From NCBI RefSeq assembly GCF_947493125.1, contig NZ_CANLQB010000001.1, positions 682,001 to 746,000 of the forward strand: 64,000 nucleotides of DNA. Direction: 5' to 3'. The stretch comes from an uncultured Roseobacter sp. (lineage in GTDB: Bacteria > Pseudomonadota > Alphaproteobacteria > Rhodobacterales > Rhodobacteraceae). Every line of letters starts with the position of its first letter. Within the stretch, counting starts at the first letter, position 1. The notes below the pieces were generated by a model. That model was given only the letters and a program-made list of their open reading frames with translations. It did not search any database and was not told where the DNA came from. The position numbers and the translations under genes are program-made. Below are positions 2,354 to 19,520 of the stretch, piece by piece.

Positions 2354-2364
2354 GACCAATCCTT

Positions 2365-3462: not shown

Positions 3463-3491
3463 AGCCGTTCATGCTAACCGCGTGAGCGGCT
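3463..3491. repeat. Second inverted repeat, AGCCGTTCA / TGAGCGGCT
   Basis: Nine-base arms with one G-U-type mismatch, an 11-nt loop, and a short TTTT on the plus strand. No plus-strand gene ends here, so a DNA-binding or transfer-origin role fits as well as termination. Confidence 0.4.
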
Positions 3492-3545
3492 TTTATGTTT
3501 GGCTGATACGATGATATTTAAGGACGTCCGTAAAATCAAGCCCTT

Positions 3546-4025: not shown

Positions 4026-4125
4026 CCCTACTGAGCAACGACCGACTACAAGAACTTTGCCATTGCTCTTGCCGTGAAGAACGCCAAGATTGAGTCAAAA
4101 GTTAGTGTTACAGCGGATGTTTATC

Positions 4126-4431
4126 ATGGCTCAGGCCCGCAGATTAGTCATTGAAGCGCCGAGAGGCAAATTTTTGAACCAGGTCTTGCATTACGTCGAG
4201 AAAAACCATGCCGAACTGGCCGAACCGGGTCATTGTCGCAAGGAGCACGGCGTAGCGCGCGGTCTTGGTGATGGGATGAAACCGGTCCTGAAGCTAACCA
4301 TCGTTGCAGTAGACGACGGAGAAGGAAACCCAGCACCTGCGATGATCGAAATCGAAGAATACGCAAAAACCTTAGGGTTCATTTGTCATATGCAGATCAC
4401 CGAGATGGATGTTAGTGACCCTGACGAGTAG
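4126..4431 (+). CDS. Hypothetical protein upstream of a membrane metallopeptidase
   Basis: A small acidic protein of about 101 residues (MAQARRLVIEAPRGKF...DVSDPDE), with no signal peptide or membrane helix. Its stop is 11 nt before the peptidase start, so the two form a pair. The start is uncertain: ATG 4117 and ATG 4126 are in frame and neither has a strong ribosome site. No family recognised. Confidence 0.5.
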   Translation: MAQARRLVIEAPRGKFLNQVLHYVEKNHAELAEPGHCRKEHGVARGLGDGMKPVLKLTIVAVDDGEGNPAPAMIEIEEYAKTLGFICHMQITEMDVSDPDE

Positions 4432-4442
4432 AAGGAGCGGCC

Positions 4443-5780
4443 ATGACCCGTGCATGGAGCGTTGATTTTGCGAACCTTATATTGCTCCTTTATACCAGCG
4501 CTCTGTTCGCGATGCTTTACCCAAAGAGCGTATGGATTGCAGCTTCACTAGGGTTGGTCACAACAGCAGCTTTTGTGTACCTGTTTTCGATCAAGCCAAC
4601 GCGTGAGTCGAACAGCTTTGATTTGCACCACCCGGACCTGAGACTAACGAGGCTGGAATTTAGAACACATCCTTCGTTTAGCTTTTTCGCCGCGAAGAGT
4701 AAGCGTCGAAATCTCATCATGGTGCCTGAATGGCGCGCTGACTTCGAGATCAGCGAGAACGAGCCAATGATTTTCCACGAGTTTGCTCATCTTAAGCGAG
4801 GAGATACCTTCGCTTTTGTCTGGCTGTATCCCTTTGTCGCGGTCTTCTCGGTCTGCTTTATCCTTTTGGCTACTGGACTGCTTGGTGAAGCCCCTAGTCT
4901 TCACTTAGTGCAGTTCATAGGAAGCCTATCTGGCGATCCTGATGGGTCGATGGAAGAGATTGTCGTTGCAGTTATCTTATTGCCAACTTTTGCGCTCATC
5001 CAAATGCTGTTGCTGATGCGTGACCGGGAGTACGGAGCAGACCGCTACGCGTTTCGACTTTTGGGTGAACGATATTCAGGATTCATCGCAAACGCAGCGA
5101 AATCAGAAGAAACAGACTATCAAGATCGGTCTCTCAAAGACCATTGGAGAACTCTTGTTGATAGCATTCTGCACCCAACATTTGGCCAAAGACGTGAAGC
5201 GCTAAAAAATCCATTTTCTTACACTGAACTTCTAGGTGTTTGGTCCGGTCTGCACTTCTCGGCAATTCTGACGTTCTCGATCATTGTATGCGCGATCCTC
5301 ACTCTCGAAGTGATAGTCAGATCGCACGGAGGTCTTGGTATAGATTTCTTTGATTTAGCGACTCAGCAACAGATGAGTGTTTTCATTTTGACCTTAACCG
5401 CCGGGCCGCTCTTTGTCGCCATACTGTCACATGGCAGTCTGGTCGTGAGAAACACCGTTGTTGAGCTTGGACCGAAAAGGTCGTGTTTGCGTCTCTTGCC
5501 GCACCTTTTAGCAACTTCCTTCTCATTTTTTTTTATAGCTCTTCTTATCAATTTTGCCTCTGATGGAAACGTTCGCGCCGAAGAGGGGTGGAACTTTGAC
5601 TTTAGGCGCACAGCAACCGCCACTGCCATTTTCTTTTTTCTGCTTTGGGCGTTTTGGTCCCGCTTCGCAAAACCTGTCGAGAAAAACCGGTTGGCCTTTC
5701 TTTTTCACGGTGCTCTTGCGGTCGTGGCGGCGGTGCTCGCCAATGTCATCACTCTGGTTACTGTACCAAGCATACAATGA
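4443..5780 (+). CDS. Integral membrane zinc metallopeptidase, M48/M56-like
   Basis: A 445-residue polytopic protein with about eight hydrophobic segments. Between the second and third lies the zinc signature MIFHEFAHLKRGD (HExxH), and after the next helices comes REYGADRYA, the ExxxD element that supplies the third zinc ligand in M48 peptidases. The active site should face the cytoplasmic side of the inner membrane, as in HtpX/Ste24 relatives. AAGGAG lies 5 nt before the ATG. It pairs with the small upstream gene, which may be substrate or regulator. BlaR1-like M56 sensors are an alternative, but no C-terminal sensor domain is visible. Confidence 0.78.
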   Translation: MTRAWSVDFANLILLLYTSALFAMLYPKSVWIAASLGLVTTAAFVYLFSIKPTRESNSFDLHHPDLRLTRLEFRTHPSFSFFAAKSKRRNLIMVPEWRADFEISENEPMIFHEFAHLKRGDTFAFVWLYPFVAVFSVCFILLATGLLGEAPSLHLVQFIGSLSGDPDGSMEEIVVAVILLPTFALIQMLLLMRDREYGADRYAFRLLGERYSGFIANAAKSEETDYQDRSLKDHWRTLVDSILHPTFGQRREALKNPFSYTELLGVWSGLHFSAILTFSIIVCAILTLEVIVRSHGGLGIDFFDLATQQQMSVFILTLTAGPLFVAILSHGSLVVRNTVVELGPKRSCLRLLPHLLATSFSFFFIALLINFASDGNVRAEEGWNFDFRRTATATAIFFFLLWAFWSRFAKPVEKNRLAFLFHGALAVVAAVLANVITLVTVPSIQ

Positions 5781-5814
5781 CGTGTTCGACGTCGCTGTCT
5801 TGGACTGATGCAGA

Positions 5815-6240
5815 TCAATTCGATATTTCACTCCAATCGCCAATATCCAGCTCTTTGCCGTTCGGGCGCAGTAGAACAGTCGTGACTAGGTCGACCTTAT
5901 CAGCGGTGAGTTTTCCTATGTTTTGGCTAAAAAAAACCGTTCCCTTTTGCATGCAATCGAACAAATAGCCGGTTTCGGCGTCCGACCCTGAAAGCGCCTC
6001 AGGTATCGAGACAGCAAACTTAAGGGCGTCAAAGTCGGCCCAAAAACCAAACCCGCCTTCACACGATATACCTTCGTTATAGCCCGCCTTTTTAACAAAG
6101 GCGGGGACTTCAGATGACGATTGCGCCAAAGCACTGCCAAGAGACAAGAGGCTCGCAAAACTGGCAACCAAACCAACCTGCGTGACCAACTTGTGACAGG
6201 TGAACTTGGAAAAAGATACCGCAAAATGATTTGCAAGCAT
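5815..6240 (-). CDS. Secreted protein, paralogue A of a tandem trio
   Basis: About 141 residues with an N-terminal hydrophobic export segment (VGLVASFASLLSLGSALAQS). The mature part has a Cys before GFGFWADFD, a second Cys (LFDC), and a terminal LLRPNGKELD. The two genes upstream share the same order of features: Cys, F-x-x-W-x-D, Cys, L-x-G/R-P-x-G-K. This marks an old tandem duplication. ATG 6240 is chosen; GTG 6252 is also possible. Function unknown; likely periplasmic or extracellular. Confidence 0.62.
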   Translation of the reverse strand: MLANHFAVSFSKFTCHKLVTQVGLVASFASLLSLGSALAQSSSEVPAFVKKAGYNEGISCEGGFGFWADFDALKFAVSIPEALSGSDAETGYLFDCMQKGTVFFSQNIGKLTADKVDLVTTVLLRPNGKELDIGDWSEISN

Positions 6241-6270
6241 CAACCGATCCACTCAACAAGAGACTGAAAG

Positions 6271-6615
6271 TTATTCACTGAATTTTCCGCCATTCGGTCC
6301 GAACAAGTCGATTTGCAGCTCTCTCGCGTCAACAACTTGGCCTGACAAAACAGCTTGCTGTAGTACTGGCGCTAGATGCAGGGCGACACAGTCTCGCATG
6401 GCTGTCTTGTTGCCACCAATTTCAGCAATCCCTACATCGGAAACCAAGGCGAACCTTGGCGTTTTGGGATCAATCCAAACAGAAAACGGGCCTTCGCAGT
6501 CCTTGTGTTCAGTATAGCTTCGATCGAGAAAAGAAGGCCGCGCACCTCTTTCACCGGCGAACAAAGACGAAGCACATAGCCCAATCACACCCAGTACAAG
6601 AAAAAATATTCGCAC
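6271..6615 (-). CDS. Secreted protein, paralogue B of a tandem trio
   Basis: I place the start at GTG 6615, because GGAG lies 7-8 nt upstream and translation then begins with a clean signal peptide (MRIFFLVLGVIGLCASSLFA). The longer frame to 6675 would put a charged stretch before it. The mature part reads PSFLDRSYTEHKDCEGPFSV then WIDPKTPRFALVSD, with a later Cys and IDLFGPNGGKF. This is the same pattern as both neighbours. Function unknown. Confidence 0.64.
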   Translation of the reverse strand: MRIFFLVLGVIGLCASSLFAGERGARPSFLDRSYTEHKDCEGPFSVWIDPKTPRFALVSDVGIAEIGGNKTAMRDCVALHLAPVLQQAVLSGQVVDARELQIDLFGPNGGKFSE

Positions 6616-6744
6616 CTCGGGTTCTCCGTGTAAGTGTACCAGTATCACGCTATGCGAGTGGTCTTCGGTTTCCAACCTAAATTTGGTAATGCAGGGATTT
6701 CAGGGATTCATTGCGCGATTGATGCCCAAAGATTGGTAATACCG

Positions 6745-7113
6745 CTATTCAAAAGCTAGCCTTTGTTCAAAGATTAATTTCCCTGTTGGTCCGTAGAGCT
6801 TGAACTCAACGTCATCCAAGGGCCGTCCTTCCAGCCGTGCATCAATCGCGTTGGGGCTGATCTTGATCACGGTTTCACCGCCTTCAACGCATGTGTTGAT
6901 ATCCGGGATAGCTGCCGACAGATCAAAGTCCATGGTCTTCGCGATTACGGCAATTCGTCCAGCATTGGGATCAACCCAGCCGAAGAACGGCTCTGGGCAT
7001 CCCAACTCAAACAAGTAACCAGAGTCCAGAAACGGAGGCGCAGCGGGTGGCGTCTCTGCCAGCGCCAAGGGCGCTGCAGAAACCAAACCAAGCAATAGGA
7101 ATATACGCTTCAT
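6745..7113 (-). CDS. Secreted protein, paralogue C of a tandem trio
   Basis: 122 residues with a clear signal peptide (MKRIFLLLGLVSAAPLALA). The mature part has PPFLDSGYLFELGCPEPFFG then WVDPNAGRIAVIAK, a mid-protein Cys (INTCVEGG) and a closing KLYGPTGKLIFEQ. GGGGAG precedes the ATG. The two conserved cysteines may form a disulfide. The gene starts 7 nt after the stop of the VPLPA-tailed protein, so the four genes 7884-5815 probably form one transcript. Confidence 0.68.
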   Translation of the reverse strand: MKRIFLLLGLVSAAPLALAETPPAAPPFLDSGYLFELGCPEPFFGWVDPNAGRIAVIAKTMDFDLSAAIPDINTCVEGGETVIKISPNAIDARLEGRPLDDVEFKLYGPTGKLIFEQRLAFE

Positions 7114-7119
7114 GTCTTT

Positions 7120-7884
7120 TCACTCCCCTCGCTGGCGCCGCGCGACCCAACCAAGACCGAGCATGCCAGCCAGCATCAGCGGCAGTGACGCTGGTAGAGG
7201 AATGGGAGCAAGCGGATCAGTTACATCACCGCTATCACCCGTGATCGAAAACTCACCCGCCCCAAAGAACAACTCTGTGTCCACGAACCCGCGAGCGTCC
7301 GACACTGTGATCACGCCACCGAGTAGGTCGAAATCGTTATCAAGACCGCCGACCGCACCGGAGAGCAAAGTGTTCGGATCATTGAAGATGTAGTCACCGC
7401 TTCCTGTCGCGCTGATCCCGAATGTAAATGATGCCGGAAGGAGCGCCCCAAGCGCACCGCTCCAGCCATCGGTCAACGCTGGAAGAAGGTGCGATGTAAC
7501 CGTCAAGCCTTGCTGGTTTGATCCCTGAATTTGGTTGACCTGCGCGACATCAACCGTCGGCAAGGACGTTGGGCTCGGAAGACCCTGAACTGCGGATGGC
7601 TCGTAAAGGATGTTTCCAAACTCCGTAGTCAGTGAGAACGACGTGAGCGCTGTCGTGATCGTGCCAAAGTCAAAGAACCGTCCAACGCCGGGGTCTGGGT
7701 TGCCGTCCGCGAAGTCGGCGTCGAACACCAGTTCCGCGATGTAGGCGCTGCCGGGCGTGTAAATGACCGACCCGTCTGATCCATCCGTGGAGCCATTGAC
7801 GGTGAGTGTGACAGTTGAAGCGAAAAGCGGCGCGCTCAGCAGCGAACAAGCAACCGCTGCGGGCAGAAAAATTCGAGACGTCAT
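7120..7884 (-). CDS. Secreted protein with VPLPA/PEP-CTERM-type sorting tail
   Basis: A 254-residue protein with a signal peptide (MTSRIFLPAAVACSLLSAPL), a beta-rich, Gly/Thr/Asp-rich middle, and the C-terminal sorting signal IPLPASLPLMLAGMLGLGWV followed by ARRQRGE. That is the motif-helix-arginine cluster of VPLPA-CTERM proteins, which are processed by an exosortase-type enzyme and exported to the surface or matrix. AAGGAG lies 7 nt upstream of ATG 7884. No exosortase is in the window. It heads an operon with three secreted paralogues, which may be its partners. Confidence 0.82.
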   Translation of the reverse strand: MTSRIFLPAAVACSLLSAPLFASTVTLTVNGSTDGSDGSVIYTPGSAYIAELVFDADFADGNPDPGVGRFFDFGTITTALTSFSLTTEFGNILYEPSAVQGLPSPTSLPTVDVAQVNQIQGSNQQGLTVTSHLLPALTDGWSGALGALLPASFTFGISATGSGDYIFNDPNTLLSGAVGGLDNDFDLLGGVITVSDARGFVDTELFFGAGEFSITGDSGDVTDPLAPIPLPASLPLMLAGMLGLGWVARRQRGE

Positions 7885-7913
7885 TGAAGCACTCCTTAAG
7901 GCTGAGAGGAAAT

Positions 7914-8045
7914 TTTTTCTGATAAGTTGGCAACCGTTGCTAGCTGTGGCTTGTGGCCTAGGAATGTTGCAGAAAGTGATCACTGCTGCGTTGCAACGCG
8001 TTGACATCAAGCCATTTTCCATACAATCCTAACTTATCAGAAAAA
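7914..8045. repeat. Perfect 15-bp inverted repeat flanking two palindromes, beside a recombinase gene
   Basis: TTTTTCTGATAAGTT (7914-7928) and AACTTATCAGAAAAA (8031-8045) are exact inverse copies 102 bp apart. Between them sit AGTGATCACT (7975-7984) and GCGTTGCAACGC (7988-7999), both perfect palindromes. The recombinase gene starts 41 bp to the right. Arm sites flanking a palindromic core is the layout expected of a tyrosine-recombinase attachment or resolution site. Confidence 0.6.
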
Positions 8046-8085
8046 GATCATATTGAGATTGACGGCAGATTTTTGAGTCTGTTCA

Positions 8086-8715
8086 ATGGCTTACATGATC
8101 GCCAAATCCGCCCCGAAACAGCCGCGCAATGTCAACCACCCAAAGAAGGGCGCGAGCATAAAAGTTGAGCCGATCAGACGGCTGGAAGACATCGCCGCGA
8201 TTAAATCCCGCCTAAGTGGAAATCCGCGCGACCTTTGCCTCTTCACCTTTGGAATCAACACCGGCTACCGCGCAGGAGAGATTCTCACACTGACGGTTGG
8301 ACAGGTCAGCCATCTCAAGGCCGGGGACAGGCTAGAGATCAAACAGAGTAAGGTCGGCAAGTATCGCTCCGTCACAGTCAATGGCGCTGTTGTCGCTGCG
8401 CTGGAAAACTGGCTACACGAACATCCGAACCCGGCGAATGATGCACCGCTCTTCATATCCCGGACTGGGAAGAAAGCCCTCAAGGTGTCATCGGTGAATG
8501 CCATGATCAAAAGCTGGTGCGCTGACATCGGCCTGCAAGGCAACTACGGCACCCACACCATGCGCAAGACCTGGGGCTACCACCAGCGCGTCCAGCAAAA
8601 CCGACCCATACCACTCCTCATGGTCGCCTTTGGCCACACCACTCAGGCCCAGACGCTCGACTACCTCTGCATTCAGGATAGCGAGATCGAAAGCCTCTAC
8701 GATCTGGAGCTGTAG
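8086..8715 (+). CDS. Catalytic-domain-only tyrosine recombinase/integrase
   Basis: A 209-residue protein with the full catalytic set: Arg62 (TGYRAGEI), Lys89 (KQSKVGKYR), His157 and Arg160 (HTMRKTWGYH), His184 (FGHTTQAQ) and the nucleophile Tyr193 (TLDYLC). It lacks the N-terminal core-binding and arm-binding domains of phage integrases, so it resembles short FimB/FimE-like recombinases. It lies beside a 15-bp inverted repeat with internal palindromes, a possible substrate. It could mobilise the element or invert/resolve a local segment. ATG 8086 is used; ATG 8095 is an alternative. Confidence 0.88.
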   Translation: MAYMIAKSAPKQPRNVNHPKKGASIKVEPIRRLEDIAAIKSRLSGNPRDLCLFTFGINTGYRAGEILTLTVGQVSHLKAGDRLEIKQSKVGKYRSVTVNGAVVAALENWLHEHPNPANDAPLFISRTGKKALKVSSVNAMIKSWCADIGLQGNYGTHTMRKTWGYHQRVQQNRPIPLLMVAFGHTTQAQTLDYLCIQDSEIESLYDLEL

Positions 8716-8818: not shown

Positions 8819-10504
8819 ATGACAGCAAAAACAAAATCAGAAAGGTTTCGCAGGCTAATTTCACACGGCTTCTTTGCGCCAGAGCTACCACCATGCTTTG
8901 TGTCGGAAGACTTGGCTAAGTACCGGCAATCTGTCTGGAAAGCTATAAATTTAATTCCCCCGAAAAAGAAGGGAGGCTCTCCTCCAATACAAAAGTATGT
9001 TTCGGAACCATGTTCTTTTTACTTTCCGCGATATGGGCGTGATGATCGTAAGCATGGAGTGATCAATCCCGTTTCATACTTGGCTATTGCACACACCGTA
9101 TCCGAGAATTTTGTTGCTTTGAGAAATGCCGCGAAAAAGTCCAAACTGTCAGCATCGCCGCCAGTTTTTGATTGGACGGGTGAGCGCGCTGTCTTAAGAC
9201 CAAGTATTGATATGCGAGACGATTTTCGAGTGGATCTATCGTCGCGGGTCGAAGAGTACTCAGTAGCAGATATAAGAGCCTTTTTTCATTCGATCTACAC
9301 GCACGCGATTCCTTGGGCAATCCATGGTAAAAAGTGGGCAAAGAAGAACAGATCTCTAGCTAACTTTGGAAACCTCTTAGATCTGTATTGCCGGAATGCA
9401 CAAGACGGTCAGACTATTGGATTGCCTGTTGGGCCTGATACTTCTCGCCTCATCGCTGAGGTGATCGCGTCCGCTGTTGATGAACAACTTCGCACTACGC
9501 TCAAGATAAGCGGACAAGATGCATCAAGATACGTGGATGACTACACCGTTGGATCGATAGAAGGGGTTTCGGGAACGGCATCCATTGCTGCCTTGAGGCA
9601 GGCCGTATCAACATTCGAGCTTGAGTTAAACAACGACAAATCTGAAGTAGTGCCCACGTCAGTCCGGCAAGGCTCCGGTTGGAAGCAAGCAATAAGAGCC
9701 CATATTCCTAGAGGCAACTACAATCATGATTCATTTCAGCGGTTCTTCTATGAAGTCGGACGGGTCTGTAGCGAACAGCCAGACATCAACATCGAGAAGT
9801 TTGCTTATCAGAATGCGAGGTCTGCTTTTGTAAGCGCTGATGATTGGAAAAAAGTGCAGAGCGCCTTGATAAGCGCCTACCGGCGCAATCCAAGCCTTGT
9901 GTCGTTCCTAGCAGAGATCCTGATACTTCGAGAAATAAAGCACAACGATGTAAACAAGATTTCACTAAAGGTATTTCTTGAGGCGCGGCTTCCCACTTTG
10001 GCTCAGGAAAACCGAACAGGCGAAATTGTATGGTTGTTGTTTCTTACACTACGTCTAGAAATAGCATTGGAAGCAAGGAAGATAAGTCCGCTTTTTGAGA
10101 TTGAAAACGGTTTAGTTGCAATTCTTGTCAACGTCGCAGATTCACGGGGCCTAATATCAGGTAAGGTTGACTATAGCCTTTGGCGAACATCAATGCACGG
10201 CGACGCGCTCTATGGTCCGATGTGGCTATACGCTTACCAGAGCTCAATGCTAGGAATTGGTCCAATCAAGAAAACTACCTACATCGAAAACGATGCGTTT
10301 TTCGCTCCGATCTTAGCAAAGAACATAAGCTTTTTGGACATCGATGCAGGCTTCACGTCAATTGATACAGTGCTCCGAAGCCGACGAAGTGAGAACCAAA
10401 GAATTAAAACTTTACGACTGGACTTTATGGAGGATTTTGATTTTGAAACGGAAGAATTTGATGATGAAGACTTCGAGTTCGACGAAGAAGTGAACCTCTA
10501 CTAA
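8819..10504 (+). CDS. Abi/DRT-type reverse transcriptase (antiphage candidate)
   Basis: 561 residues. RT motif A is ADIRAFFHSIYTHAIPWAIH with Asp151. Motif B is TIGLPVGPDTSRLIAEVIAS. The catalytic YVDD box is at residues 238-241 (SRYVDDYTVGS), followed by LELNNDKSEVV. The phrase SIYTHAIPWAIHGK and the absence of a maturase or endonuclease domain place it with abortive-infection and 'unknown group' defence RTs, not group II introns. The C-terminal 300 residues look alpha-helical, as in AbiA/AbiK relatives, and the protein ends in a strikingly acidic tail (EEFDDEDFEFDEEVNLY). ATG 8819 has GGAGG 4 nt upstream. I cannot assign a DRT subclass. A structured intergenic region and a membrane-protein gene follow directly. 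Confidence 0.88.
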   Translation: MTAKTKSERFRRLISHGFFAPELPPCFVSEDLAKYRQSVWKAINLIPPKKKGGSPPIQKYVSEPCSFYFPRYGRDDRKHGVINPVSYLAIAHTVSENFVALRNAAKKSKLSASPPVFDWTGERAVLRPSIDMRDDFRVDLSSRVEEYSVADIRAFFHSIYTHAIPWAIHGKKWAKKNRSLANFGNLLDLYCRNAQDGQTIGLPVGPDTSRLIAEVIASAVDEQLRTTLKISGQDASRYVDDYTVGSIEGVSGTASIAALRQAVSTFELELNNDKSEVVPTSVRQGSGWKQAIRAHIPRGNYNHDSFQRFFYEVGRVCSEQPDINIEKFAYQNARSAFVSADDWKKVQSALISAYRRNPSLVSFLAEILILREIKHNDVNKISLKVFLEARLPTLAQENRTGEIVWLLFLTLRLEIALEARKISPLFEIENGLVAILVNVADSRGLISGKVDYSLWRTSMHGDALYGPMWLYAYQSSMLGIGPIKKTTYIENDAFFAPILAKNISFLDIDAGFTSIDTVLRSRRSENQRIKTLRLDFMEDFDFETEEFDDEDFEFDEEVNLY

Positions 10505-10772
10505 CTTGTAGAGCCGGCGCAGTTATTGTCGCTGTCAATCCATCCGTCGAGGCTGAGATAATCCATAGGACGGACCGTAACCGCCTATTCCGAGATCAGA
10601 GCGTATGACAAAATGACTTCCGTTTCGACCTTACGTTACACGCAAGATATGCGGTGTATGACACCGCATTTGCTCAGCGATTTTCAATCGCCTCGGCAAG
10701 GGGGCGTGCCGCCCCCTGTGCAACCCCCTGCCAATTCTTGTTTGGAGCCTTGATCATCAAGGAGTTGAAGGT
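10505..10772 (+). ncRNA. Structured intergenic region with four perfect triloop hairpins (candidate RNA)
   Basis: Four consecutive perfect stems, each with a loop of exactly three bases, lie between the RT gene and the next ATG: 10649-10669 (9-bp stem, loop ATG), 10677-10691 (6 bp, loop TTC), 10699-10717 (8 bp, AGGGGGCG/CGCCCCCT, loop TGC) and 10748-10762 (6 bp, loop TCA). A further CTCTAC/GTAGAG pair spans the RT stop codon (10496-10513). No U-run follows the hairpins, so they are not simple terminators. RT defence systems often carry a structured RNA next to the RT gene. Whether this is one is inference. Confidence 0.45.
10748..10762 (+). promoter_or_regulatory. Hairpin covering the ribosome site of the downstream membrane-protein gene
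   Basis: CCTTGA-TCA-TCAAGG folds so that the AAGG of AAGGAG (10759-10764) is base-paired. The start codon is at 10773, so this is the natural ribosome site. Translation of the membrane protein could therefore depend on opening this stem. Confidence 0.4.
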
Positions 10773-11438
10773 ATGAGTGAATGGAAATCTGAACATCGCC
10801 TGCTTCAGTGGCCGTTCATCAAGGCTTTCGCTGGCAGTGAATTCGTCAAGTTTGCTGCGGTAATTCCTGTCGTTGGTTACATCATAATTTTCAACGATAG
10901 TGTGGTTGGCTCGTTGAGCTTCTTGCGAATAGCCGGTGTTGATGAAACGGACAGTGATCCATTCTGGCTTTCCAGCGTCACGAAACTTCGACTAGCTTTT
11001 TTCGGTGGCATATTCATGCTCGTTGCGAATTCACTGCAAGCATGGCTGGCTCCTCGAGCACTCGAAAACTCAAAGAATGACGTCGACTTCACAGACCGTG
11101 TTGTCTCGACATTATCTTATGGAGAAATTGTTGCAATGCAGAAAGAGGTGCTTTTAAAAAACTGGGTTTGGCGAACACCGATGATGACTAGCCTCAATCG
11201 CGCTTCTAGAGACCAACTAATCCCGCACCCAGATTTCTCGGGTTTCTCTGACAAAAGAGTGATTTTGCGTCATGGAGACTATCTCCGTGGCCTATCACGG
11301 GAATGGTGGTCAGGCAAAATGCACCAAAGGCGAGGTTGGCGATACACAATATTGTTGATCGCCAGCATGGGCTACGCCATGTTGCTAGCTCCGACATTGG
11401 ACATCACCCAAGCGGTCGTTTTCGATCTCGTTCGCTGA
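10773..11438 (+). CDS. Multi-span membrane protein between RT and PHP-SMC ATPase
   Basis: 221 residues with hydrophobic segments around 26-42 (FAAVIPVVGYIIIF), 74-90 (AFFGGIFMLVANSL) and 188-208 (YTILLIASMGYAMLLAP). Between the second and third is a soluble region with aromatic and charged residues. AAGGAG lies 8 nt before the ATG. I do not recognise the family with certainty. Membrane-spanning effectors are frequent partners in antiphage loci, and the location between an Abi-like RT and a TrlF-like ATPase makes an effector role a reasonable inference. Confidence 0.72.
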   Translation: MSEWKSEHRLLQWPFIKAFAGSEFVKFAAVIPVVGYIIIFNDSVVGSLSFLRIAGVDETDSDPFWLSSVTKLRLAFFGGIFMLVANSLQAWLAPRALENSKNDVDFTDRVVSTLSYGEIVAMQKEVLLKNWVWRTPMMTSLNRASRDQLIPHPDFSGFSDKRVILRHGDYLRGLSREWWSGKMHQRRGWRYTILLIASMGYAMLLAPTLDITQAVVFDLVR

Positions 11439-11568
11439 TTGAGCGGCACCTTAAAGCTGCGTGATCGTGTGAGGCTTTCAAGGCTCTTGACTTGTCGGCT
11501 GAGCTCTTTTTCGCTAGCATATAAAGCAGATAATTCTTGTTTTTTTAGTAAAAACCATAGGTTAAGGT

Positions 11569-14562
11569 ATGAACAGCAAACGCGAGCAGCCTCAAAGTCG
11601 AGGGTCAACTTGGCACTATTGGGAGCCCCACATTCATGCTCCGGGAACGCTGCACGAAGACCGTTATGACGGCTCTGAAGACCTAGAAGACTATCTCCAA
11701 AAGCTCGAAAATCTCACTCCGGTCCCAAGCGCTATCGGCATAACTGAGTATTGCGTAACCGAGACTTATGAGCGTGTGAGAGAGCAAAAGTCGCTAGGAA
11801 GGCTCGAGAATTGCAACTGCTTGTTCGCAAATATCGAATTGCGCTTAGATATTGGAACAACGAAAGGGTACTTCGTCAATATTCACCTATTGGTGTGCCC
11901 AGATGATGAGAACCACATTGCTGAGACGAACAAATTTTTGAGCAAGCTAGAGTTTTCCGCTTTTGATGACACGTTCTCCTGCACCCCAACCGAACTTATC
12001 AGGCTCGGTCGGAAACACGATTCAGCTCTTGATGAAAGAGCCGCGCTACGCAAAGGTGCTATGCAATTCAAGATTGCTCGCGAGAAACTGGTTGATATTC
12101 ACCAAAGAAACGCTTGGGCACGCGACAATATATTGATTGCCGTTTCTGGTAACGCAGACGGGACTTCAGGTGTCAAAGAAGCAGCCGACCAAACGCTTAG
12201 GCAAGAGATTGAGTCCTGCGCTCATGCAATATTCACAGGAAACCCTAAACAAAGGGAGTTCTGGCTCGGGAATTCTTCCAAGATAACCGTTGAGAAGCTC
12301 CATGAGCGTTACAACGGTCAAAAGCCTTGCATATGGGGTTGCGATGCGCACGAATACTCTAAAATTGGCAACCCTGATGGCGACAGATACTGCTGGATCA
12401 AGGGAGTCCCGAGTTTTGATACCTTAAGGCAAGCTTGTATTGATCCTGAACGTGCATTTGTTGGAGCCCAACCGCCATCTGGAGCGTCACCATCTCAGGT
12501 CATTGATCACTTGGTAATCAAAAACGCGGATTGGGCAAGGACCAATCGATTGAACTTTAACCCTGGACTAGTGGCGATCATTGGCGCCCGTGGATCGGGC
12601 AAAACAGCCTTAGCTGACATGATAGCGGCGGGCTGCCACGCGTTTGAAGATCAGCCTGACAGCCCCTCGTTCTTGAAGAAGGCTAAGGAAAAGTTTCAAG
12701 ATGATTCAATCGAATTGGCCTGGGCAGACAACTCGGACACAGCCCATGTTTTGCTTTCTCACCCCGTGGGCAGAGGCTCAGACAGTTACCCGCGCGCACG
12801 GTATTTGTCGCAGCAGTTCGTTGAGTATCTGTGTTCCAACGAAGGAATGCCAGAGCTTCTGAAGGAAATCCAACGAGTTATATTCAACTCGCATACCACG
12901 CTGGAGCGTGACGCCGCGCTTGACTTCGAAGAGCTTTTAGATGTTCGCACGCACGCGTATCGCGATGCCCGAAATCGTGAAGAGACTGCATTGGCAAATC
13001 TGTCAGATGAAATCGGTGCCGAACTGGAAAAGGCAAAGAAGGTGGAGTCACTGACCAAGAAAGTGACTGAAAAGGAAATAAAGATTCGTAGGTATGAAGC
13101 TGATCAAAAAGCCCTTATGCCCAAGAACCCATCTACCGCTTCAACGCGCCTTGCCCAGTTGATGGAAGCGGTGGAGCCAAAACGCCAAGCGCTTCGAAAC
13201 TTCAAATTCCAAGAAACCAGCCTAAAGAACCTAGAAGGAGACATCTCCGAGGTCAGAAACAATATGGCTCCTGCTCATTTGCGAGATCTCGAAAAAAAGC
13301 ATGAAAAAACGTCCCTTCAAGAGGCTGAGTGGAGCAGGTTCTTACTGGATTTTTCAGGACAGGTTGACGAAACCGTCAACGAACACTCTACGAAGATTAG
13401 CAAAAAGATTGAAGAACTCAAAGGAGACAAGCCAACGGAATCTGGCGATGTATCGGTTGCATTCATTGAAGACGATGCTGACCTTAGAAAAGTGTCTCTC
13501 GAACTGCTTGAAGCTGAGATATCGAGGCTGCAGGCCGTCGTCACATCAGACAAGGTATCAGCAAAAAAACTGCAAACTGTTTCGAGAAATATCCAGACGG
13601 AGAACGCAGCGCTTGAAAGAATCCGAGAAGAGTTAGTGGACTGCAAAGGAGCGTCGGATCGCGCGCGAGAATTGGTCGAGGAGAGACGTGAAGGCTATGA
13701 GCGGGTCTTTGATGCCCTTCTGAGCGAAGAGCGTGTGCTCAAGGAGCTCTACTCTCCTTTGGTGGATCGGTTGAAGGACTATGAGGGCACGTTACGCAAT
13801 TTGTCATTTGCCGTGAGGCGTGTCGCCGACGTGGAAAAGTGGTCAGAGCATGCGGAAAATAGTCTGTTCGACCGACGTGGTGGCCCCTTCAAAGGTAAAG
13901 GAACTCTGACTGAGATTGCCGAAGAAAAGCTCAAGGCAGCTTGGCAGACCGGAACTAAAGAAGAAGTCTCCGAGGCCATGACGGCTTTTCGAGATACTTA
14001 CGAAAAGGAGCTGCTCGAGCGCGCGCCCTACCAAGATGCAAAGTCACAGGAGTATCGGGAGTGGGCAAGACGTTTCGCGAAATGGCTATATGGAACTAGC
14101 CACATCAAAATCGAATACGGTGTTCTCTACAATGGCGTGGACATCCGTAAGCTCTCGCCAGGAACCCGTGGCATCGTACTGGTACTGCTATACTTGGCTC
14201 TCGATGATGAAGACGAACGGCCACTAATCATTGATCAGCCAGAGGATAACCTAGATCCGAAGTCGATTTTTGATGAGCTTGTCCCGCTGTTTCATCTATC
14301 CAAGCAACGTCGGCAGGTCTTCTTGGTCACGCATAACGCGAACCTCGTCGTCAACACTAACGCTGACCAGATTATCATTGCAGATGCAGAACCGCATGAA
14401 GTGGATGGTCTACCACCAATCAGTTACGAGACGGGCGGCTTGGACGAAGCACATATATGGAAACAAGTTCGAAAGATTTTGGAAGGCGGCAAAAATGCCT
14501 TTCGTGATAGAGCCAGACGGCTCAGAATTTCTCTTCCTCGAAGGCATCCAGACGACAAATAA
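11569..14562 (+). CDS. PHP-SMC fusion ATPase (TrlF-like), probable defence protein
   Basis: 997 residues. The N-terminus is a PHP-type phosphoesterase-like domain: WEPHIHAPG supplies the HxH pair (His21, His23), and AIGITEYCVTETY resembles the next metal motif. An SMC/Rad50-like ATPase follows: Walker A GARGSGKT near 339-346, a long charged coiled-coil from about 460 to 760, the signature LSPGTRGIVLVLL near 862, and Walker B PLIIDQPEDNLD near 885. The final HNANLVVNTNADQI is typical of ABC/SMC heads. This architecture is annotated as the TrlF family and recurs in defence islands, where a nuclease gated by a DNA-sensing ATPase is assumed. The start has AAGG just upstream with unusually short spacing. 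Confidence 0.87.
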   Translation: MNSKREQPQSRGSTWHYWEPHIHAPGTLHEDRYDGSEDLEDYLQKLENLTPVPSAIGITEYCVTETYERVREQKSLGRLENCNCLFANIELRLDIGTTKGYFVNIHLLVCPDDENHIAETNKFLSKLEFSAFDDTFSCTPTELIRLGRKHDSALDERAALRKGAMQFKIAREKLVDIHQRNAWARDNILIAVSGNADGTSGVKEAADQTLRQEIESCAHAIFTGNPKQREFWLGNSSKITVEKLHERYNGQKPCIWGCDAHEYSKIGNPDGDRYCWIKGVPSFDTLRQACIDPERAFVGAQPPSGASPSQVIDHLVIKNADWARTNRLNFNPGLVAIIGARGSGKTALADMIAAGCHAFEDQPDSPSFLKKAKEKFQDDSIELAWADNSDTAHVLLSHPVGRGSDSYPRARYLSQQFVEYLCSNEGMPELLKEIQRVIFNSHTTLERDAALDFEELLDVRTHAYRDARNREETALANLSDEIGAELEKAKKVESLTKKVTEKEIKIRRYEADQKALMPKNPSTASTRLAQLMEAVEPKRQALRNFKFQETSLKNLEGDISEVRNNMAPAHLRDLEKKHEKTSLQEAEWSRFLLDFSGQVDETVNEHSTKISKKIEELKGDKPTESGDVSVAFIEDDADLRKVSLELLEAEISRLQAVVTSDKVSAKKLQTVSRNIQTENAALERIREELVDCKGASDRARELVEERREGYERVFDALLSEERVLKELYSPLVDRLKDYEGTLRNLSFAVRRVADVEKWSEHAENSLFDRRGGPFKGKGTLTEIAEEKLKAAWQTGTKEEVSEAMTAFRDTYEKELLERAPYQDAKSQEYREWARRFAKWLYGTSHIKIEYGVLYNGVDIRKLSPGTRGIVLVLLYLALDDEDERPLIIDQPEDNLDPKSIFDELVPLFHLSKQRRQVFLVTHNANLVVNTNADQIIIADAEPHEVDGLPPISYETGGLDEAHIWKQVRKILEGGKNAFRDRARRLRISLPRRHPDDK

Positions 14563-14765
14563 TTTGTCCAACGGCAGCTTTAGTCTCACGCTGAAAATGA
14601 CTTAGGGCTCCGCCCCCGGCGCACTTCGATAAAAATAGACAAGGCCGTGGCTCAGTCCCTTGCGCCCGCACCAACCTCGTCGATTTTTCCCTCCGTTTGC
14701 ACCCCCGTTCTCGCCGAAGGGCAAGGTTGCATGAGCAACCCATACCCTATGAAGAGGACAAGAAA

Positions 14766-15284
14766 ATGAAAACGTCACAAGGAGATATCCAAATCTATGT
14801 AGCCTGTTTGGCTAGCTATAATAGCGGACAGTTGCACGGCACGTGGATTGACGCGGAGCAAGACGCCAACGCGATCAGTGACGAGGTGCAGGCCATGCTG
14901 GCAGCGTCATCAATGGACGATGCGGAAGAGTGGGCTATCCATGACTATGAGGGCTTCGAAGGCGTGCGCGTATCGGAGTGGGAAGGCTTTGCCGAGGTTT
15001 CAAAGCTTGCAGCATTCATCGCCGAACACGGCAAGATGGGCGCGGCGTTGATCAACCATCTCGGGTCAATCGAGGAAGCCCGCAAGGCTATCGAAGACAG
15101 CTACGCCGGAGAGTATTGCTCTCTGGCAGAGTTCGCCGAAGAGTTAACTGAACAGAGCACAGACATCCCTGAGAGCATCCGTTCCTACATCGACTATAAC
15201 CGCATAGCGCGGGACATCGAGATCAATGACGTGTTCACCGTCGAAACAGGCGTTGAGCAAGTCCATGTGTTCTGGAGTCACTGA
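14766..15284 (+). CDS. ardA: Antirestriction protein ArdA
   Basis: 172 residues from ATG 14766 (MKTSQGDIQIYVACLASYNS). The opening IYVACLASYNSGQLHGTWID, the acidic surface and the elongated fold signature are those of ArdA, a DNA mimic that blocks type I restriction when conjugative DNA enters a recipient. The upstream leader contains a small GGGC-TCC-GCCC hairpin near 14606. A longer frame from 14697 adds an Arg-rich tail that I treat as non-coding. Its presence supports conjugative transfer of this region. Confidence 0.92.
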   Translation: MKTSQGDIQIYVACLASYNSGQLHGTWIDAEQDANAISDEVQAMLAASSMDDAEEWAIHDYEGFEGVRVSEWEGFAEVSKLAAFIAEHGKMGAALINHLGSIEEARKAIEDSYAGEYCSLAEFAEELTEQSTDIPESIRSYIDYNRIARDIEINDVFTVETGVEQVHVFWSH

Positions 15285-15614: not shown

Positions 15615-17255
15615 CTATCGCGCACCCGAAGTCATCTGTGGCTTCTGGGGTTCGTTTGGGTCATTCGCGGCAGGTGAGTTGTAAATGTCGCCCATACGGT
15701 TTTGTTGTTCAAGCCACGCCTTACGGTCTAGTTCTGCGACGGCTTGACCTGCACTTTGATTGAGCTGCCCCAATTCCTCATTGCGCAGCTTTTTCATACC
15801 GTCGGGGTATTGGCTTTCGAGCAAATTAATTGCCGCATCTGGCGTATCGGGGTTAGTCAGATAGGCATGACCTTGACTATACTCAACGGGGTGCATTTCC
15901 GTATATGGGTCGTTAATCCGCTCAATCAGTTGGGAAGCTTCTGTATAAGCCTCGCTCGTTTCGCCACTGGTTGCGGCCATCCATTGCGCATCGTCGCCTA
16001 AGGCAAGGTCAGGGTTGCCAGTCGGAATTTTTGGAAGCATGTCTTCGGGCAGTTCACCGCCAAGACGGTATTTCAGCATTTCGAGGTTAGGCGGCAAAAC
16101 ACCAGTTTCAATGTGTGTGCTCGCATGCAGGGCTGCGTCATTGTCGCCATCGATGTTTGGGACTTGTTTTGCGCCGATATCGTGTTCAAATTCGGCGAAC
16201 CGCGCGTCACGCTCGGCATCACGTTGGAGATCATAAAGCGCAAGGATTTCGGGATCAGCCGTTACAGATTGTTGCGCGGCCAAGTCAGCTTCGCGTTCAG
16301 CAATCGGATATCGGTGTTCTGCAATGATGCGATTGACGTAAGGATTTGCCAGATCGTCGGCGTAGCGCGCGCCTACTTCACACCCCACAGCACCCGTTGC
16401 AAGCGAGCCCCAACCTCCGCCACCGACAGCGCCAGCAAGCGCGCCAACGCCACAACCGATCACACCTGGTGTAACCTGCACAAATTCTTCGAACGCGCCG
16501 TCTTGGTCGCCGTGCACGGCCATCATACTGGCATCCCAATATTCGGGTTTGGCAGTTTCTGCCATTGCATCACCGGCCTGCGCGGGGCTTCCTGTCATGA
16601 TGAGTGTACCGACACCCGCAACCGCAATCATGCCCGTGCCGAGAAGAACGCCTTTTGCGTCTGGTAGATTGAGTTTCGTGTTCGTCACGTCTGCCTCGTA
16701 TGGATGCCCAGCCTTGAAATCACGCGCGCGTGTGTAATCGTCGACAAGATCACCAGCGCCCAAAGAGCGCTTGGGGGCGTTTGAAAGCTCAGTCTTGTAC
16801 TTGGAAAGGTGGTCAATCCATGCTCCGTCAGACACGGAACGAACTTCAGGCCTCTTGCCATCCATGTTGTCAGCGGCATCATTCAATGCACTATCGAAGT
16901 CCTTATTTTGCCGCCTTAACTCAGGCCTAATTAGCGTCCCTGCATGTCCATCAGTTTCAAACTGTGCTGGATTGAAAAAGAGCATGGTACGGTTTGATGG
17001 GTTACTGTTAAAAAATGTAATCCTATCAGTTGAGTCATCTATAAAATACTTTGTCTCTGGATCGCTCAGCGTTTCACGCACATGTCCGCGAAAATTGTCT
17101 TTTTCAACAATTTGCAAGGAGTCCCCCATGCTTCTGCTTGGTGGCTGAGACTTTCCGCTACTTCGTTCGTCTCTTAGGTCTGGTGAGTGCTTTCGAAAAG
17201 CGTGCTCAGTCACACTGTTTATGTATGCATCAACAATTTGGTTCGGCTCACTCAT
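15615..17255 (-). CDS. Large glycine-zipper protein behind the relaxase (candidate exported effector)
   Basis: 546 residues, mostly hydrophilic and Asp/Glu-rich. It has a hydrophobic segment at 202-227 (GVLLGTGMIAVAGVGTLIMT) and a glycine-zipper-like stretch at 264-297 (GVGALAGAVGGGGWGSLATG). Residues 88-120 (TMLFFNPAQF, then GTLIRPELRR) resemble a linker seen in bacterial secreted toxins. No signal peptide is present. Its ATGA start overlaps the stop of the small gene upstream. Position beside a relaxase, a membrane-active-looking segment and a coupled small partner suggest a protein carried by a type IV system. I cannot name a family. Confidence 0.62.
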   Translation of the reverse strand: MSEPNQIVDAYINSVTEHAFRKHSPDLRDERSSGKSQPPSRSMGDSLQIVEKDNFRGHVRETLSDPETKYFIDDSTDRITFFNSNPSNRTMLFFNPAQFETDGHAGTLIRPELRRQNKDFDSALNDAADNMDGKRPEVRSVSDGAWIDHLSKYKTELSNAPKRSLGAGDLVDDYTRARDFKAGHPYEADVTNTKLNLPDAKGVLLGTGMIAVAGVGTLIMTGSPAQAGDAMAETAKPEYWDASMMAVHGDQDGAFEEFVQVTPGVIGCGVGALAGAVGGGGWGSLATGAVGCEVGARYADDLANPYVNRIIAEHRYPIAEREADLAAQQSVTADPEILALYDLQRDAERDARFAEFEHDIGAKQVPNIDGDNDAALHASTHIETGVLPPNLEMLKYRLGGELPEDMLPKIPTGNPDLALGDDAQWMAATSGETSEAYTEASQLIERINDPYTEMHPVEYSQGHAYLTNPDTPDAAINLLESQYPDGMKKLRNEELGQLNQSAGQAVAELDRKAWLEQQNRMGDIYNSPAANDPNEPQKPQMTSGAR

Positions 17256-17650
17256 TTTTTTGCACGCTCTCTTCTAATAATACGCGAGGCCTGCCACACC
17301 GATTGATGGACGGAGTCCAAAAGATCCGAGTATTTTTCGTATGAGTCGCCTTTTTCTATTTCTATCAGCTCATCAAACTGGTGAATTGCGGTATAAAGTA
17401 GTCCAACCAACAACATGTAATGATCATCATTTAGGATGAGTGCCTTTGGGTCCTGGTTGTCAGATTCATTAACTATCTTTGATAAACTATTGATGCGATC
17501 TTGGGCTGCATAATGATCCATGATCGTCTCGTCAATTTCGTCATAATGGTCGTTCTGGTAGTTCACAAAGAAATGTACCAGCCACCATTCGTCATCAGTA
17601 AAATCACTGATCGTTGTTGTCTTGTTGTCGCGTAATATTTTCAAAAACAT
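17252..17650 (-). CDS. Small acidic helical protein coupled to the glycine-zipper protein
   Basis: 132 residues from ATG 17650 (MFLKILRDNKTTTISDFTDD); GTG 17656 is an alternative start. It is strongly acidic with Tyr/His and a Leu-rich helical middle (HYMLLVGLLYTAIHQFDELI), and has no signal peptide. Its stop overlaps the next start by four bases. The size, charge and tight coupling to a possible effector fit an immunity protein or secretion chaperone; that is inference from layout only. Confidence 0.62.
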   Translation of the reverse strand: MFLKILRDNKTTTISDFTDDEWWLVHFFVNYQNDHYDEIDETIMDHYAAQDRINSLSKIVNESDNQDPKALILNDDHYMLLVGLLYTAIHQFDELIEIEKGDSYEKYSDLLDSVHQSVWQASRIIRRERAKK

Positions 17651-17760
17651 CCCCACTTAAAAAATGCCAGACGCCACTATAGCGATAGTTTCCCCAAACT
17701 GCAAATTTTAGATAAGAAATATCGTTTGTTTTCATGATGGTAGGGCGCGCAAGCGGGGCG

Positions 17761-19077
17761 CTATGGACACGGTCCATCCCTTGTCCGTCCGCGTTTAGGC
17801 CTCGGCGATGATCGGGATCGGCGCTGTTTGAACTGCTGTTCCGCATGCTGCGTATCGGCGCGTTGTTGCAGGGTTGATTGATCCTGCCTTAGCTCTTTCA
17901 TGTTGGTTTCACGGCGCTCACGGAAGGCTTGTTCTTTCGTCTCGATGCGTTGGCGCAGCATCGCTTGTTGCGCCGTGAGGCGCTCTTTTTCCGATCTATC
18001 GCGCGCTTGTGCCTTGAGCGCCGCGTCACGGTTTTGGGCTTCGATCTTGCGGCGTTTGCCTGTGATGCGATCAATCAGCCCCATAAAGCCTTTGCGCACG
18101 CGGGCGTCTCGTTCGCGGGTTTCACGCTGCTCACGTAACTTGTGCAGCACATCCATCTTTGTGCGCTCGTCGCGTTGCGCGGCGTCCTGGCGGGCTTTGA
18201 GGGCGGCCATCCGTTCCCTGTCCCGCGCAGCGGCGCGTGCTTGTTCGATGCGGAGCGTTTCAAGACGATCAGTGACGATCTTTGCCGCCTGTTGGTGGGC
18301 GTCCCGAACCGAGGGGAGCTGTTCAGCATCACCGAGGCGGGCTTTCACATCTTTGGTCTTTTGCCCCGTCCATTTGGCGATGGCGTAGACTTCGCCCTGA
18401 TGATCCAGTGCAACATAGCCCCGCCGATCACCCCGCGCGAGGATCAGGCCGCGTTCCCTGAGCGCCGCCTGAAATGCCGCCTTTGAATCCGACACGGCCC
18501 AGGCATCCTGAAACAGGGTCTTGGTCTCTTTGGGGTCGCGCTCAGCCCGTTTGGCTTGCTGCCATTCGGCAAGGCTATAATTGGCGGGGTCTTTCCATTG
18601 CGATTTCACGAGGCCTTTGGGCATCGTCCAGTCATGCTTGAGGTACAGCTCGCGCGAGACATCATTCAGCTTGCGATGATCATGCGCCATATGGACAGCT
18701 TTCATCTCATCTGTATCAATGCGGCACCACACAGCATGGGCATGACGGCGAAGTTCGCCGTCGCTGCCGAGTTTCTCGTGAAACACAATCGCTCTCGGTT
18801 GGCCTGTCAGGCCGAGGCGGTCTTCGACGCGAGATATCGCATCCTCGAATTCTGCGACGGAAACCTGTTCATTCTTAGGCGGGTTCAAACTCAGGGAATA
18901 AAGATGCTGCTGGCATTTGGTGGCGCGGCTTATCGCATAGCTTTCCTGAAAGGCCCCATGCAGATCAGAAGAAGCAAAGCCCCGCACTTCATGCACGGTG
19001 ACGCGTTCATTCTCATCTTTCATCAGATGATTGGCGAGGTCTTTTCCACCGCCGCGTTGATTGCCGACGAGGATCAC
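17761..19077 (-). CDS. MobA/VirD2-type relaxase (mobilization nuclease)
   Basis: 438 residues starting at GTG 19077, which overlaps the mobC stop (GTGA). The N-terminal 150 residues show the relaxase fold: a long alternating region and the metal-binding motif LRRHAHAVWCRID (HxH), preceded by AIVFHEKLGSDGE. The C-terminal half is a long Arg/Glu/Gln-rich coiled coil (RDRERMAALKARQDAAQRDE), typical of MOBP-like relaxases. It should nick the transfer origin and lead the DNA into the recipient, working with MobC and the coupling protein at 740-2353. Confidence 0.87.
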   Translation of the reverse strand: MILVGNQRGGGKDLANHLMKDENERVTVHEVRGFASSDLHGAFQESYAISRATKCQQHLYSLSLNPPKNEQVSVAEFEDAISRVEDRLGLTGQPRAIVFHEKLGSDGELRRHAHAVWCRIDTDEMKAVHMAHDHRKLNDVSRELYLKHDWTMPKGLVKSQWKDPANYSLAEWQQAKRAERDPKETKTLFQDAWAVSDSKAAFQAALRERGLILARGDRRGYVALDHQGEVYAIAKWTGQKTKDVKARLGDAEQLPSVRDAHQQAAKIVTDRLETLRIEQARAAARDRERMAALKARQDAAQRDERTKMDVLHKLREQRETRERDARVRKGFMGLIDRITGKRRKIEAQNRDAALKAQARDRSEKERLTAQQAMLRQRIETKEQAFRERRETNMKELRQDQSTLQQRADTQHAEQQFKQRRSRSSPRPKRGRTRDGPCP

Positions 19078-19520
19078 GACGGACGTAGCCCAAGGGCGCG
19101 GAGCAAGTCCTTGCGCAATTCGATGATCGACACCAAGGCCAGCCGCAAAAGCCGTTCGCTCTTCTCATCCAGATGCAGCGTGCCGTCTTTCACGGCCCAA
19201 GTCAGTTGTTCAAGATCATGCGCTAGGTTTGATGCGCCAAGCGCTCGCAGTACCTTCGCCAGCGCCGAGTGATCTTTGACCGGGTTCAATCCGCGAGATC
19301 GACGGGGCTTGGCATCCTCCGCCAAAAGGCATTCACGAATGTAGGCACTCAAGGATTTCTTGCCTGCGCGTTGATCCAACAATGCGCGTTCTTCAGGTGT
19401 AAAGCGAACGGAAACAGGCGCGATTTTCTTGCGCTTGGGCTTTGGCGGTTTTTCCAGAACCCGTTCATTGAACGTCTCGGTGATATAGGTGTTTTGGTCT
19501 TCGAGAAGGAACTTGTTCAT
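19074..19520 (-). CDS. mobC: MobC-like relaxosome accessory protein
   Basis: 148 residues. VRFTPEERALLDQRAGKKSL then SAYIRECLLAED is the ribbon-helix-helix-like core of the MobC family, which binds the transfer origin and helps the relaxase melt DNA. The C-terminal part (LARALGASNLAHDLEQL-like, then a Leu-rich helix) also matches the family layout. GAGGGG precedes the ATG. It is followed by the relaxase with a 4-base overlap. Confidence 0.85.
   Translation of the reverse strand: MNKFLLEDQNTYITETFNERVLEKPPKPKRKKIAPVSVRFTPEERALLDQRAGKKSLSAYIRECLLAEDAKPRRSRGLNPVKDHSALAKVLRALGASNLAHDLEQLTWAVKDGTLHLDEKSERLLRLALVSIIELRKDLLRALGLRPS

What the first reader, a model, noticed from the sequence alone, without database searches (positions are those of the whole stretch)
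8819..14562. Three-gene RT / membrane protein / PHP-SMC locus: a possible composite antiphage system
An Abi/DRT-type reverse transcriptase (YVDD 238-241, acidic C-tail), a multi-span membrane protein and a 997-residue PHP-SMC ATPase lie consecutively on one strand between a tyrosine recombinase and ardA. Each part is typical of defence genes. Separate recombinase, RT, membrane and TrlF-like genes in one cassette is an arrangement I do not recognise as a named system. The parts could also be independent neighbours in a defence island.
Basis: partly seen in the sequence, partly recalled or inferred. Interest (0 to 1): 0.8.

Follow-up and report, generated by a model that had tools for sequence, protein, structure and literature searches.

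The report
Standalone defence genes in mobile island
Three neighbouring bacterial genes that looked like a new joint anti-virus system are more likely a known type of stand-alone DNA-making defence enzyme, a known type of stand-alone defence ATPase and an unrelated membrane protein that happen to share a mobile island.

Summary
In detail: recombinase, RT with YVDD, membrane protein, PHP-SMC ATPase and ardA lie in that order on the + strand. The composite-system reading is not supported. The RT is a DRT6: best PADLOC model Drt6 (518 bits), best structural match the solved hexameric DRT6 (9wy8, TM 0.80/0.90). A 2026 commentary lists DRT6 as a single-gene system related to DRT4. The 997-residue protein passes NCBI's TrlF cut-off (636 vs 350 bits). 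The membrane protein belongs to an unnamed family. In the DNA fetched, 0 of 28 RT relatives have the other two nearby, 0 of 32 membrane-protein relatives, 0 of 22 TrlF relatives. One feature deserves follow-up: the RT's fast-evolving acidic tail ends in a tyrosine that is the last residue in 13 of 13 close sequences. Related RTs (DRT3b, DRT9, DRT10) prime DNA synthesis from a residue at or near the extreme C-terminus, so Tyr561 is the likely protein primer (about 0.6). Two distant relatives of the membrane protein directly follow a Lamassu LmuB-like ATPase, which leaves a small chance that it is an effector module; four others follow parE.

The parts
8819..10504 (+). DRT6-type reverse transcriptase, 561 aa; YVDD 238-241; helical C-terminal part; low-confidence, probably disordered acidic tail 541-561 ending in Tyr561
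   Evidence: PADLOC Drt6 7.4e-156, 518 bits; PDB 9wy8 by sequence 5e-54 and by fold 3.5e-29, TM 0.80/0.90; AF2 pLDDT 88, residues 540-561 below 50
10439..10501 (+). codons 541-561 of the RT: acidic tail with the terminal tyrosine, the proposed protein primer
   Evidence: 13 of 13 close sequences end in Tyr; mean pairwise identity of residues 541-560 is 0.34 but 1.00 at 561 in 7 non-redundant rows
10505..10772 (+). 268-nt gap with three back-to-back hairpins (about 10649-10717); separates RT and membrane gene; no conserved ncRNA detected
   Evidence: z -1.98; not shared with 11 other RT loci compared
10773..11438 (+). 221-aa membrane protein, unnamed accessory family
   Evidence: no Pfam, PADLOC or NCBIfam match at E<=0.01; relatives in 12 other genomes of 394 in the family sample and in 26 of 390 in the order sample, own included
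11569..14562 (+). TrlF-family PHP-SMC ATPase, 997 aa
   Evidence: NF045780 1.5e-190, 636 bits against cut-off 350; motifs
8086..8715 (+). tyrosine recombinase, 209 aa, mobile-element context
   Evidence: PF00589 2.8e-17
14697..15284 (+). ArdA antirestriction protein, mobile-element context
   Evidence: PF07275 3e-45

Best explanation
The locus is a stack of independent genes in a mobilisable island. (1) The RT is a stand-alone DRT6. It most likely forms a hexamer, starts a DNA chain on its own C-terminal Tyr561 (about 0.6) and polymerises DNA without a nucleic-acid template; during infection the product accumulates and arrests the cell. (2) TrlF is a separate single-gene PHP/SMC-ATPase defence protein. 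(3) The membrane protein is an unrelated accessory gene. Shown here: class, fold, motifs, terminal Tyr, lack of linkage in the loci sampled. Inferred from relatives: hexamer, protein priming, untemplated synthesis, phage trigger, and how TrlF acts.
For: RT class: PADLOC Drt6 518 bits against 352 for the next, Drt4; nearest fold is the hexameric DRT6 9wy8, then DRT4/UG15, AbiK, Abi-P2. DRT6 is listed as single-gene and DRT4-related in PMC13213688; PMC13314766 calls DRT4 Tyr-primed and template-independent, and DRT6 'probably similar'. Independence: membrane gene and TrlF absent from 12 of 12 close and 16 of 16 distant RT loci; RT and TrlF absent from 32 of 32 membrane-protein loci; RT and membrane gene absent from 22 of 22 TrlF loci. 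No neighbour within 5 kb is shared across the close RT loci apart from Gabija in 5 of 12 and one ABC-type ATPase pair. Some distant RTs sit as cargo beside P2-like tail genes (L098, L101, L106; by eye). Priming: terminal Tyr in 13 of 13; DRT3b Y666 of 667, DRT9 Y496/Y498 and DRT10 S456 prime from the C-terminus.
Against: All three genes point the same way with gaps of 268 and 130 nt, so co-transcription is possible. One close RT relative (L007) is followed 23 nt later by a 227-aa protein with a hydrophobic N-terminus (by eye; no family hit), and the distant L097 has short membrane-like proteins on both sides (by eye); neither matches the window's membrane protein. Two distant relatives of the membrane protein directly follow a Lamassu LmuB-like ATPase (L012, L151), so the family can be part of defence operons. 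AbiK and Abi-P2 prime from a fingers-loop Tyr (Y44, Y61), not the tail, and in 7 of 16 distant RT relatives no Tyr lies within the last 10 residues. No activity was tested.
Confidence: 0.85

Rival explanations
1. A true composite system: the RT's DNA product gates the membrane protein and/or TrlF, as proposed for DRT10 (RT plus SLATT membrane protein, tyrosine recombinase nearby).
For: Same strand and order; DRT10 needs its SLATT protein, and two of three tested DRT10 systems had a tyrosine recombinase with them, which was dispensable. [quoted passage not shown]
Against: The RT is Drt6 (7.4e-156), while the UG17 model is at 1.2e-6; the membrane protein hits no family; co-occurrence 0 of 28, 0 of 32, 0 of 22.
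Confidence: 0.05
2. The membrane protein and TrlF form a pair (SMC-type sensor plus membrane effector) and the RT is independent.
For: Distant relatives of the membrane protein directly follow an LmuB-like SMC ATPase in 2 of 32 loci; one other genome, G476, carries both genes on one contig, 48 kb apart.
Against: 0 of 22 TrlF loci have the membrane gene; no LmuB-like or TrlF protein lies by the other 30 of 32 membrane-protein relatives, including the closest (33-44% identity). Genomes with both, own excluded: 1 of 393 against about 0.4 expected from 12 and 13 carriers (my arithmetic, which used different E-value limits).
Confidence: 0.08
3. DRT6 here primes from an internal Tyr, as AbiK does, and the terminal Tyr serves another role such as substrate mimicry or assembly.
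For: AbiK Y44 and Abi-P2 Y61; Y160 and Y473 are invariant in 15 of 15 aligned RTs; 7 of 16 distant relatives have no Tyr near the end.
Against: The window RT has no Tyr between residues 36 and 59, the region that I take, from the order of helices only, to match the AbiK loop. Y160 lies in the conserved YTHxIPW stretch after motif A, which suggests a structural role (inference).
Confidence: 0.3

Closest known systems
DRT6 (PDB 9wy8)
   Same: Nearly full-length sequence and fold match; single gene
   Different: 26% identity in the fold alignment; the clade here ends exactly in Tyr; the end of the 9wy8 chain was not seen
DRT4 / UG15
   Same: Same fold, next-best model and structures; protein-primed, template-independent by two secondary papers
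   Different: Second-best by PADLOC and Foldseek
TrlF family AAA-like ATPase (NF045780)
   Same: Full-length match above the curated cut-off, PHP and SMC motifs
   Different: Nothing notable; up to 51% identical in family genomes and 55% on plasmids
DRT10 (UG17 RT + SLATT + ncRNA)
   Same: RT, membrane protein and tyrosine recombinase side by side
   Different: RT class differs, membrane protein not SLATT at profile level, linkage not conserved, no ncRNA detected
Lamassu (LmuB-like) operons
   Same: Two distant homologues of the membrane protein follow LmuB-like ATPases
   Different: No LmuB here; TrlF is a different SMC-type protein

Membership tests
DRT6 | Best and near full-length match to the Drt6 profile | tested here: met
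   7.4e-156, 518 bits, residues 9-548
DRT6 | Fold of the solved DRT6 | tested here: met
   9wy8 rank 1, TM 0.80/0.90, rmsd 2.7
DRT6 | Catalytic aspartates of the RT (YxDD) | tested here: met
   D240 and D241 invariant in 15 of 15
DRT6 | Single-gene organisation, no ncRNA | tested here: met
   No neighbour within 5 kb shared across the 12 close loci (Gabija in 5 of 12, no other but one ABC-type pair); flanking DNA not shared with the window in 11 loci compared, except 9 nt just before the start codon in L008; no Rfam hit at gathering threshold
DRT6 | Hexamer, DNA synthesis, phage protection | not testable with these tools
   -
TrlF family ATPase | NF045780 above cut-off, full length | tested here: met
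   636 vs 350 bits, residues 11-985
TrlF family ATPase | PHP and Walker motifs | tested here: met
   (motif identities recalled)
DRT10 | UG17 RT | tested here: not met
   RT_UG17 1.2e-6 against Drt6 7.4e-156
DRT10 | SLATT-domain partner | tested here: not met
   Profile level only: no hit for the membrane protein at E<=0.01 in three libraries; 8 relatives against Pfam at E<=1 gave no SLATT. A very divergent SLATT could be missed
DRT10 | ncRNA upstream of the SLATT gene | tested here: inconclusive
   268-nt gap folds with z -1.98; no Rfam hit; not conserved with RT relatives
Three-gene composite system | The three genes stay together across genomes | tested here: not met
   0 of 28, 0 of 32, 0 of 22 loci

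The most novel reading that the evidence does not exclude
The membrane protein belongs to a new family of exchangeable membrane effectors that couple to SMC-type sensor ATPases (LmuB-like in two genomes) and here works with the TrlF ATPase, next to a DRT6 that primes DNA synthesis strictly from its last residue.
Probability: 0.08. Interest if true: 0.55.

Novelty: new member of a known kind. Interest (0 to 1): 0.3.

Why it matters
It removes a false lead (a composite RT/membrane/PHP-SMC system) and replaces it with a cheap, sharp prediction: DRT6 enzymes of this clade prime from the terminal tyrosine. If so, these Class 1-like untemplated RTs would share C-terminal priming with DRT3b, DRT9 and DRT10, and a C-terminal tag should disable them, as one did for DRT9.

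Tried and rejected
Composite system: rejected on linkage. DRT10-like system: rejected on RT class and membrane protein. Conserved ncRNA beside the RT: among 12 loci compared (window, L003-L008, L095, L051-L054) the only shared flanks outside the near-identical plasmids are 39 nt between L003 and L006 and short stretches at the start codon; no Rfam family. Structure of the membrane protein: single-sequence AF2 gave pLDDT 40, not used. Membrane family on plasmids: none; in viral contigs: none with the single protein, profile too divergent to scan; in a class sample: 2 of 289, own included. RT profile in a phylum sample: 2 of 398, own included, the other distant. TrlF in viral contigs: none. TrlF and solved structures by sequence: none at E<=0.01. 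Near-identical DNA of the island on plasmids: none. Left edge of the island not found: the 40 kb to the left show no match to the flanks of two relatives' copies of the first conserved gene. VIA-align was unavailable.

Not done or partial: of 6 close plasmid RT hits I opened 4 (H1, H2, H5, H6; H3 and H4 list with the same identity, score and record length as H2). Of 214 plasmid TrlF records I opened 8. In one search the two weak places in G1275 and G1170 were not opened; six rows repeated places already counted (own included). In the tail count I dropped L105, whose ORF is only 349 aa; L094 is in the tail count but was not in the linkage count. Several loci end near the gene (for example L007, L024, L068, L151, L156), so a neighbour beyond the contig end would be missed. 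For close RT loci flanks were up to 8 kb; the neighbour comparison used 5 kb.

Papers: PMC13213688 was read as part 1 of 2 of its text; PMC13314766, PMC12632851, PMC12483538, PMC13174585 and PMC9508834 as found passages only; all others as search listings. The DRT4 primary paper is not held and the DRT6 one was seen only as a reference, so DRT4/DRT6 mechanism rests on two secondary papers.

Full report
What is there. The ORF order of the finding is correct: tyrosine recombinase 8086-8715, RT 8819-10504, membrane protein 10773-11438, PHP-SMC protein 11569-14562, ardA 14697-15284, all on the + strand (domains). YVDD lies at RT residues 238-241 and the PHP and Walker motifs are present in the 997-aa protein. 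The window lies at 682001-746000 of contig C1 of its genome. GC is 0.45-0.59 per kilobase from 1 to 20 kb and 0.58-0.66 from 20 to 56 kb. DNA from 19600-21600 is matched in 16 of 19 genus genomes, own included, and in the two compared closely the match begins at window 19813-19814. In contrast, 1-8080 is matched in only 1 of 18 other genomes, by 77 bp. A NikA-like gene and a MobA/VirD2-type relaxase lie at 17.8-19.5 kb. The genes therefore sit in a mobile, low-GC island.

What the RT is. PADLOC's Drt6 model is the best of 69 matches: 518 bits over residues 9-548, against 352 bits for Drt4. NCBI's Drt4 equivalog scores 178.7 against a cut-off of 450. The best solved relative by sequence is 9wy8 (5e-54, residues 8-552). 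An AF2 model from 15 sequences has mean pLDDT 88. Foldseek puts the cryo-EM structure of the hexameric DRT6 first (TM 0.80/0.90), then DRT4/UG15, AbiK and Abi-P2. A 2026 commentary lists DRT6 as 'single-gene, DRT4-related', activated by the phage protein ORF55 (PMC13213688). A second paper describes DRT4 as template-independent and primed by a conserved tyrosine, and DRT6 as probably similar (PMC13314766, passages).

The tail. In 13 close sequences (window, L003-L009, L051-L054, L095; L004/L009 and the four plasmid loci are near-copies) all 13 end in Tyr as the very last residue, with 12-16 acidic residues in the last 30. Among 7 non-redundant rows, mean pairwise identity is 0.34 for residues 541-560 but 1.00 at 561. 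The tail has low confidence in the model, so it is probably disordered. Of 16 distant relatives, 9 have a Tyr within the last 6 residues, 2 of these (L096, L103) at the very end. In the other 7 (L104, L106, L107, L108-L111) the last Tyr is 12 or more residues from the end or absent from the last 30. In related enzymes the priming residue is at or near the extreme C-terminus: DRT3b Y666 of 667 (PMC13174585), DRT9 Y496/Y498 (PMC12483538), DRT10 S456 of 456 (PMC12632851). AbiK and Abi-P2 instead use a fingers-loop Tyr (PMC9508834). I infer, at about 0.6, that Tyr561 is the primer. The C-terminal residues of RTs across the UG tree were extracted and aligned in PMC13174585 (methods passage), so the pattern may not be new to print for the family at large.

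Is it a composite? Three tests, all on the DNA fetched (mostly 6-8 kb each side, less at contig ends). RT side: 7 relatives in genome contigs, 4 opened of 6 close plasmid hits, 1 close and 16 distant viral contigs: 0 of 28 carry the membrane gene or TrlF. Membrane side: 12 relatives besides own in 394 family genomes and 20 further places from a profile search of 390 order genomes: 0 of 32 carry RT or TrlF. TrlF side: 14 places in family genomes and 8 plasmid loci: 0 of 22 carry the RT or the membrane gene. I conclude that the three genes are independent.

What the neighbours are instead. Some close RTs have no obvious partner in the ORF lists (L004, L005, L009; by eye). L003 has a different tyrosine recombinase upstream. 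L006 is followed by two small genes without PADLOC match, L007 by a 227-aa protein with a hydrophobic N-terminus and no family. L095 comes from the viral collection. In 5 of 12 close loci the RT lies beside Gabija genes. In the four rhizobial plasmids GajA and GajB lie upstream, 15 nt before the RT; in L008 a different GajA type and a GajB-like helicase lie downstream (PADLOC for L051 and for the L008 GajA; the rest by match). That is two arrangements, and Gabija is common (recalled), so I read this as island clustering. A blast of neighbours within 5 kb across the 12 loci showed no other shared gene except an ABC-type ATPase in L004 and L005; the remaining matches lie inside the RT gene itself.

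The membrane family. Four copies lie directly downstream of, or overlap, a gene that passes NCBI's parE cut-off (L028, L146, L148, L150; positions; family). Two distant copies directly follow an LmuB-like ATPase (L012 by PADLOC, 1.5e-43; L151 by match to L012, 1.1e-226), and no other of the 32 does. Four proteins upstream of LmuB in L012 match no PADLOC model. Most others sit beside varied genes (by eye). So the family is not tied to defence.

How it likely works. The RT likely acts alone as a hexamer that starts DNA on its own tail and makes untemplated DNA whose accumulation during infection stops the cell (inferred from DRT4, DRT3b and AbiK). TrlF likely senses DNA with its SMC-like ATPase and cuts with its PHP domain (inferred from domains and recalled; two searches found no paper on TrlF in defence). 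The membrane protein's role is unknown; my best guess is an accessory membrane effector or exclusion factor (weak).

Verdict. Real observation, known parts; new member of known kinds; interest 0.3, carried mainly by the terminal tyrosine and the membrane family.

Noticed in passing
L051-L054 4123-9704; L008 7917-13441: DRT6 RTs beside Gabija genes in two arrangements (GajAB 15 nt upstream in rhizobial plasmids, GajA split by an IS4 transposase in L053; a different GajA type downstream in Novosphingobium).
   Followed up: partly
L012 6363-10004; L151 2669-6330: Four-gene layout: two small genes, an LmuB-like ATPase and a distant relative of the window's membrane protein; the small genes in L012 match no PADLOC model. 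Possible Lamassu variant with a membrane component.
   Followed up: partly
L028 8710-11336; L146 6278-8904; L148 6678-9070; L150 8073-10728: Membrane-family gene directly downstream of, or overlapping, parE in four genomes (parE confirmed).
   Followed up: partly
L098, L101, L106: Distant DRT6/DRT4-like RTs lie as single cargo genes next to P2-like tail genes (by eye).
   Followed up: no
window 10649-10717: Three back-to-back hairpins between the RT and the membrane gene; no T-run.
   Followed up: partly
window 15615-19520: Relaxase, NikA-like gene and a 546-aa protein without family on the - strand next to ardA, suggesting a mobilisable element; right edge near 19.5-19.8 kb.
   Followed up: partly
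window 4443-5780: Membrane-bound M48-like metalloprotease (weak Pfam match, just below cut-off) in the same island.
   Followed up: no
L007 9722-10405: 227-aa protein with a hydrophobic N-terminus 23 nt after a close DRT6 RT; no Pfam or PADLOC match.
   Followed up: partly
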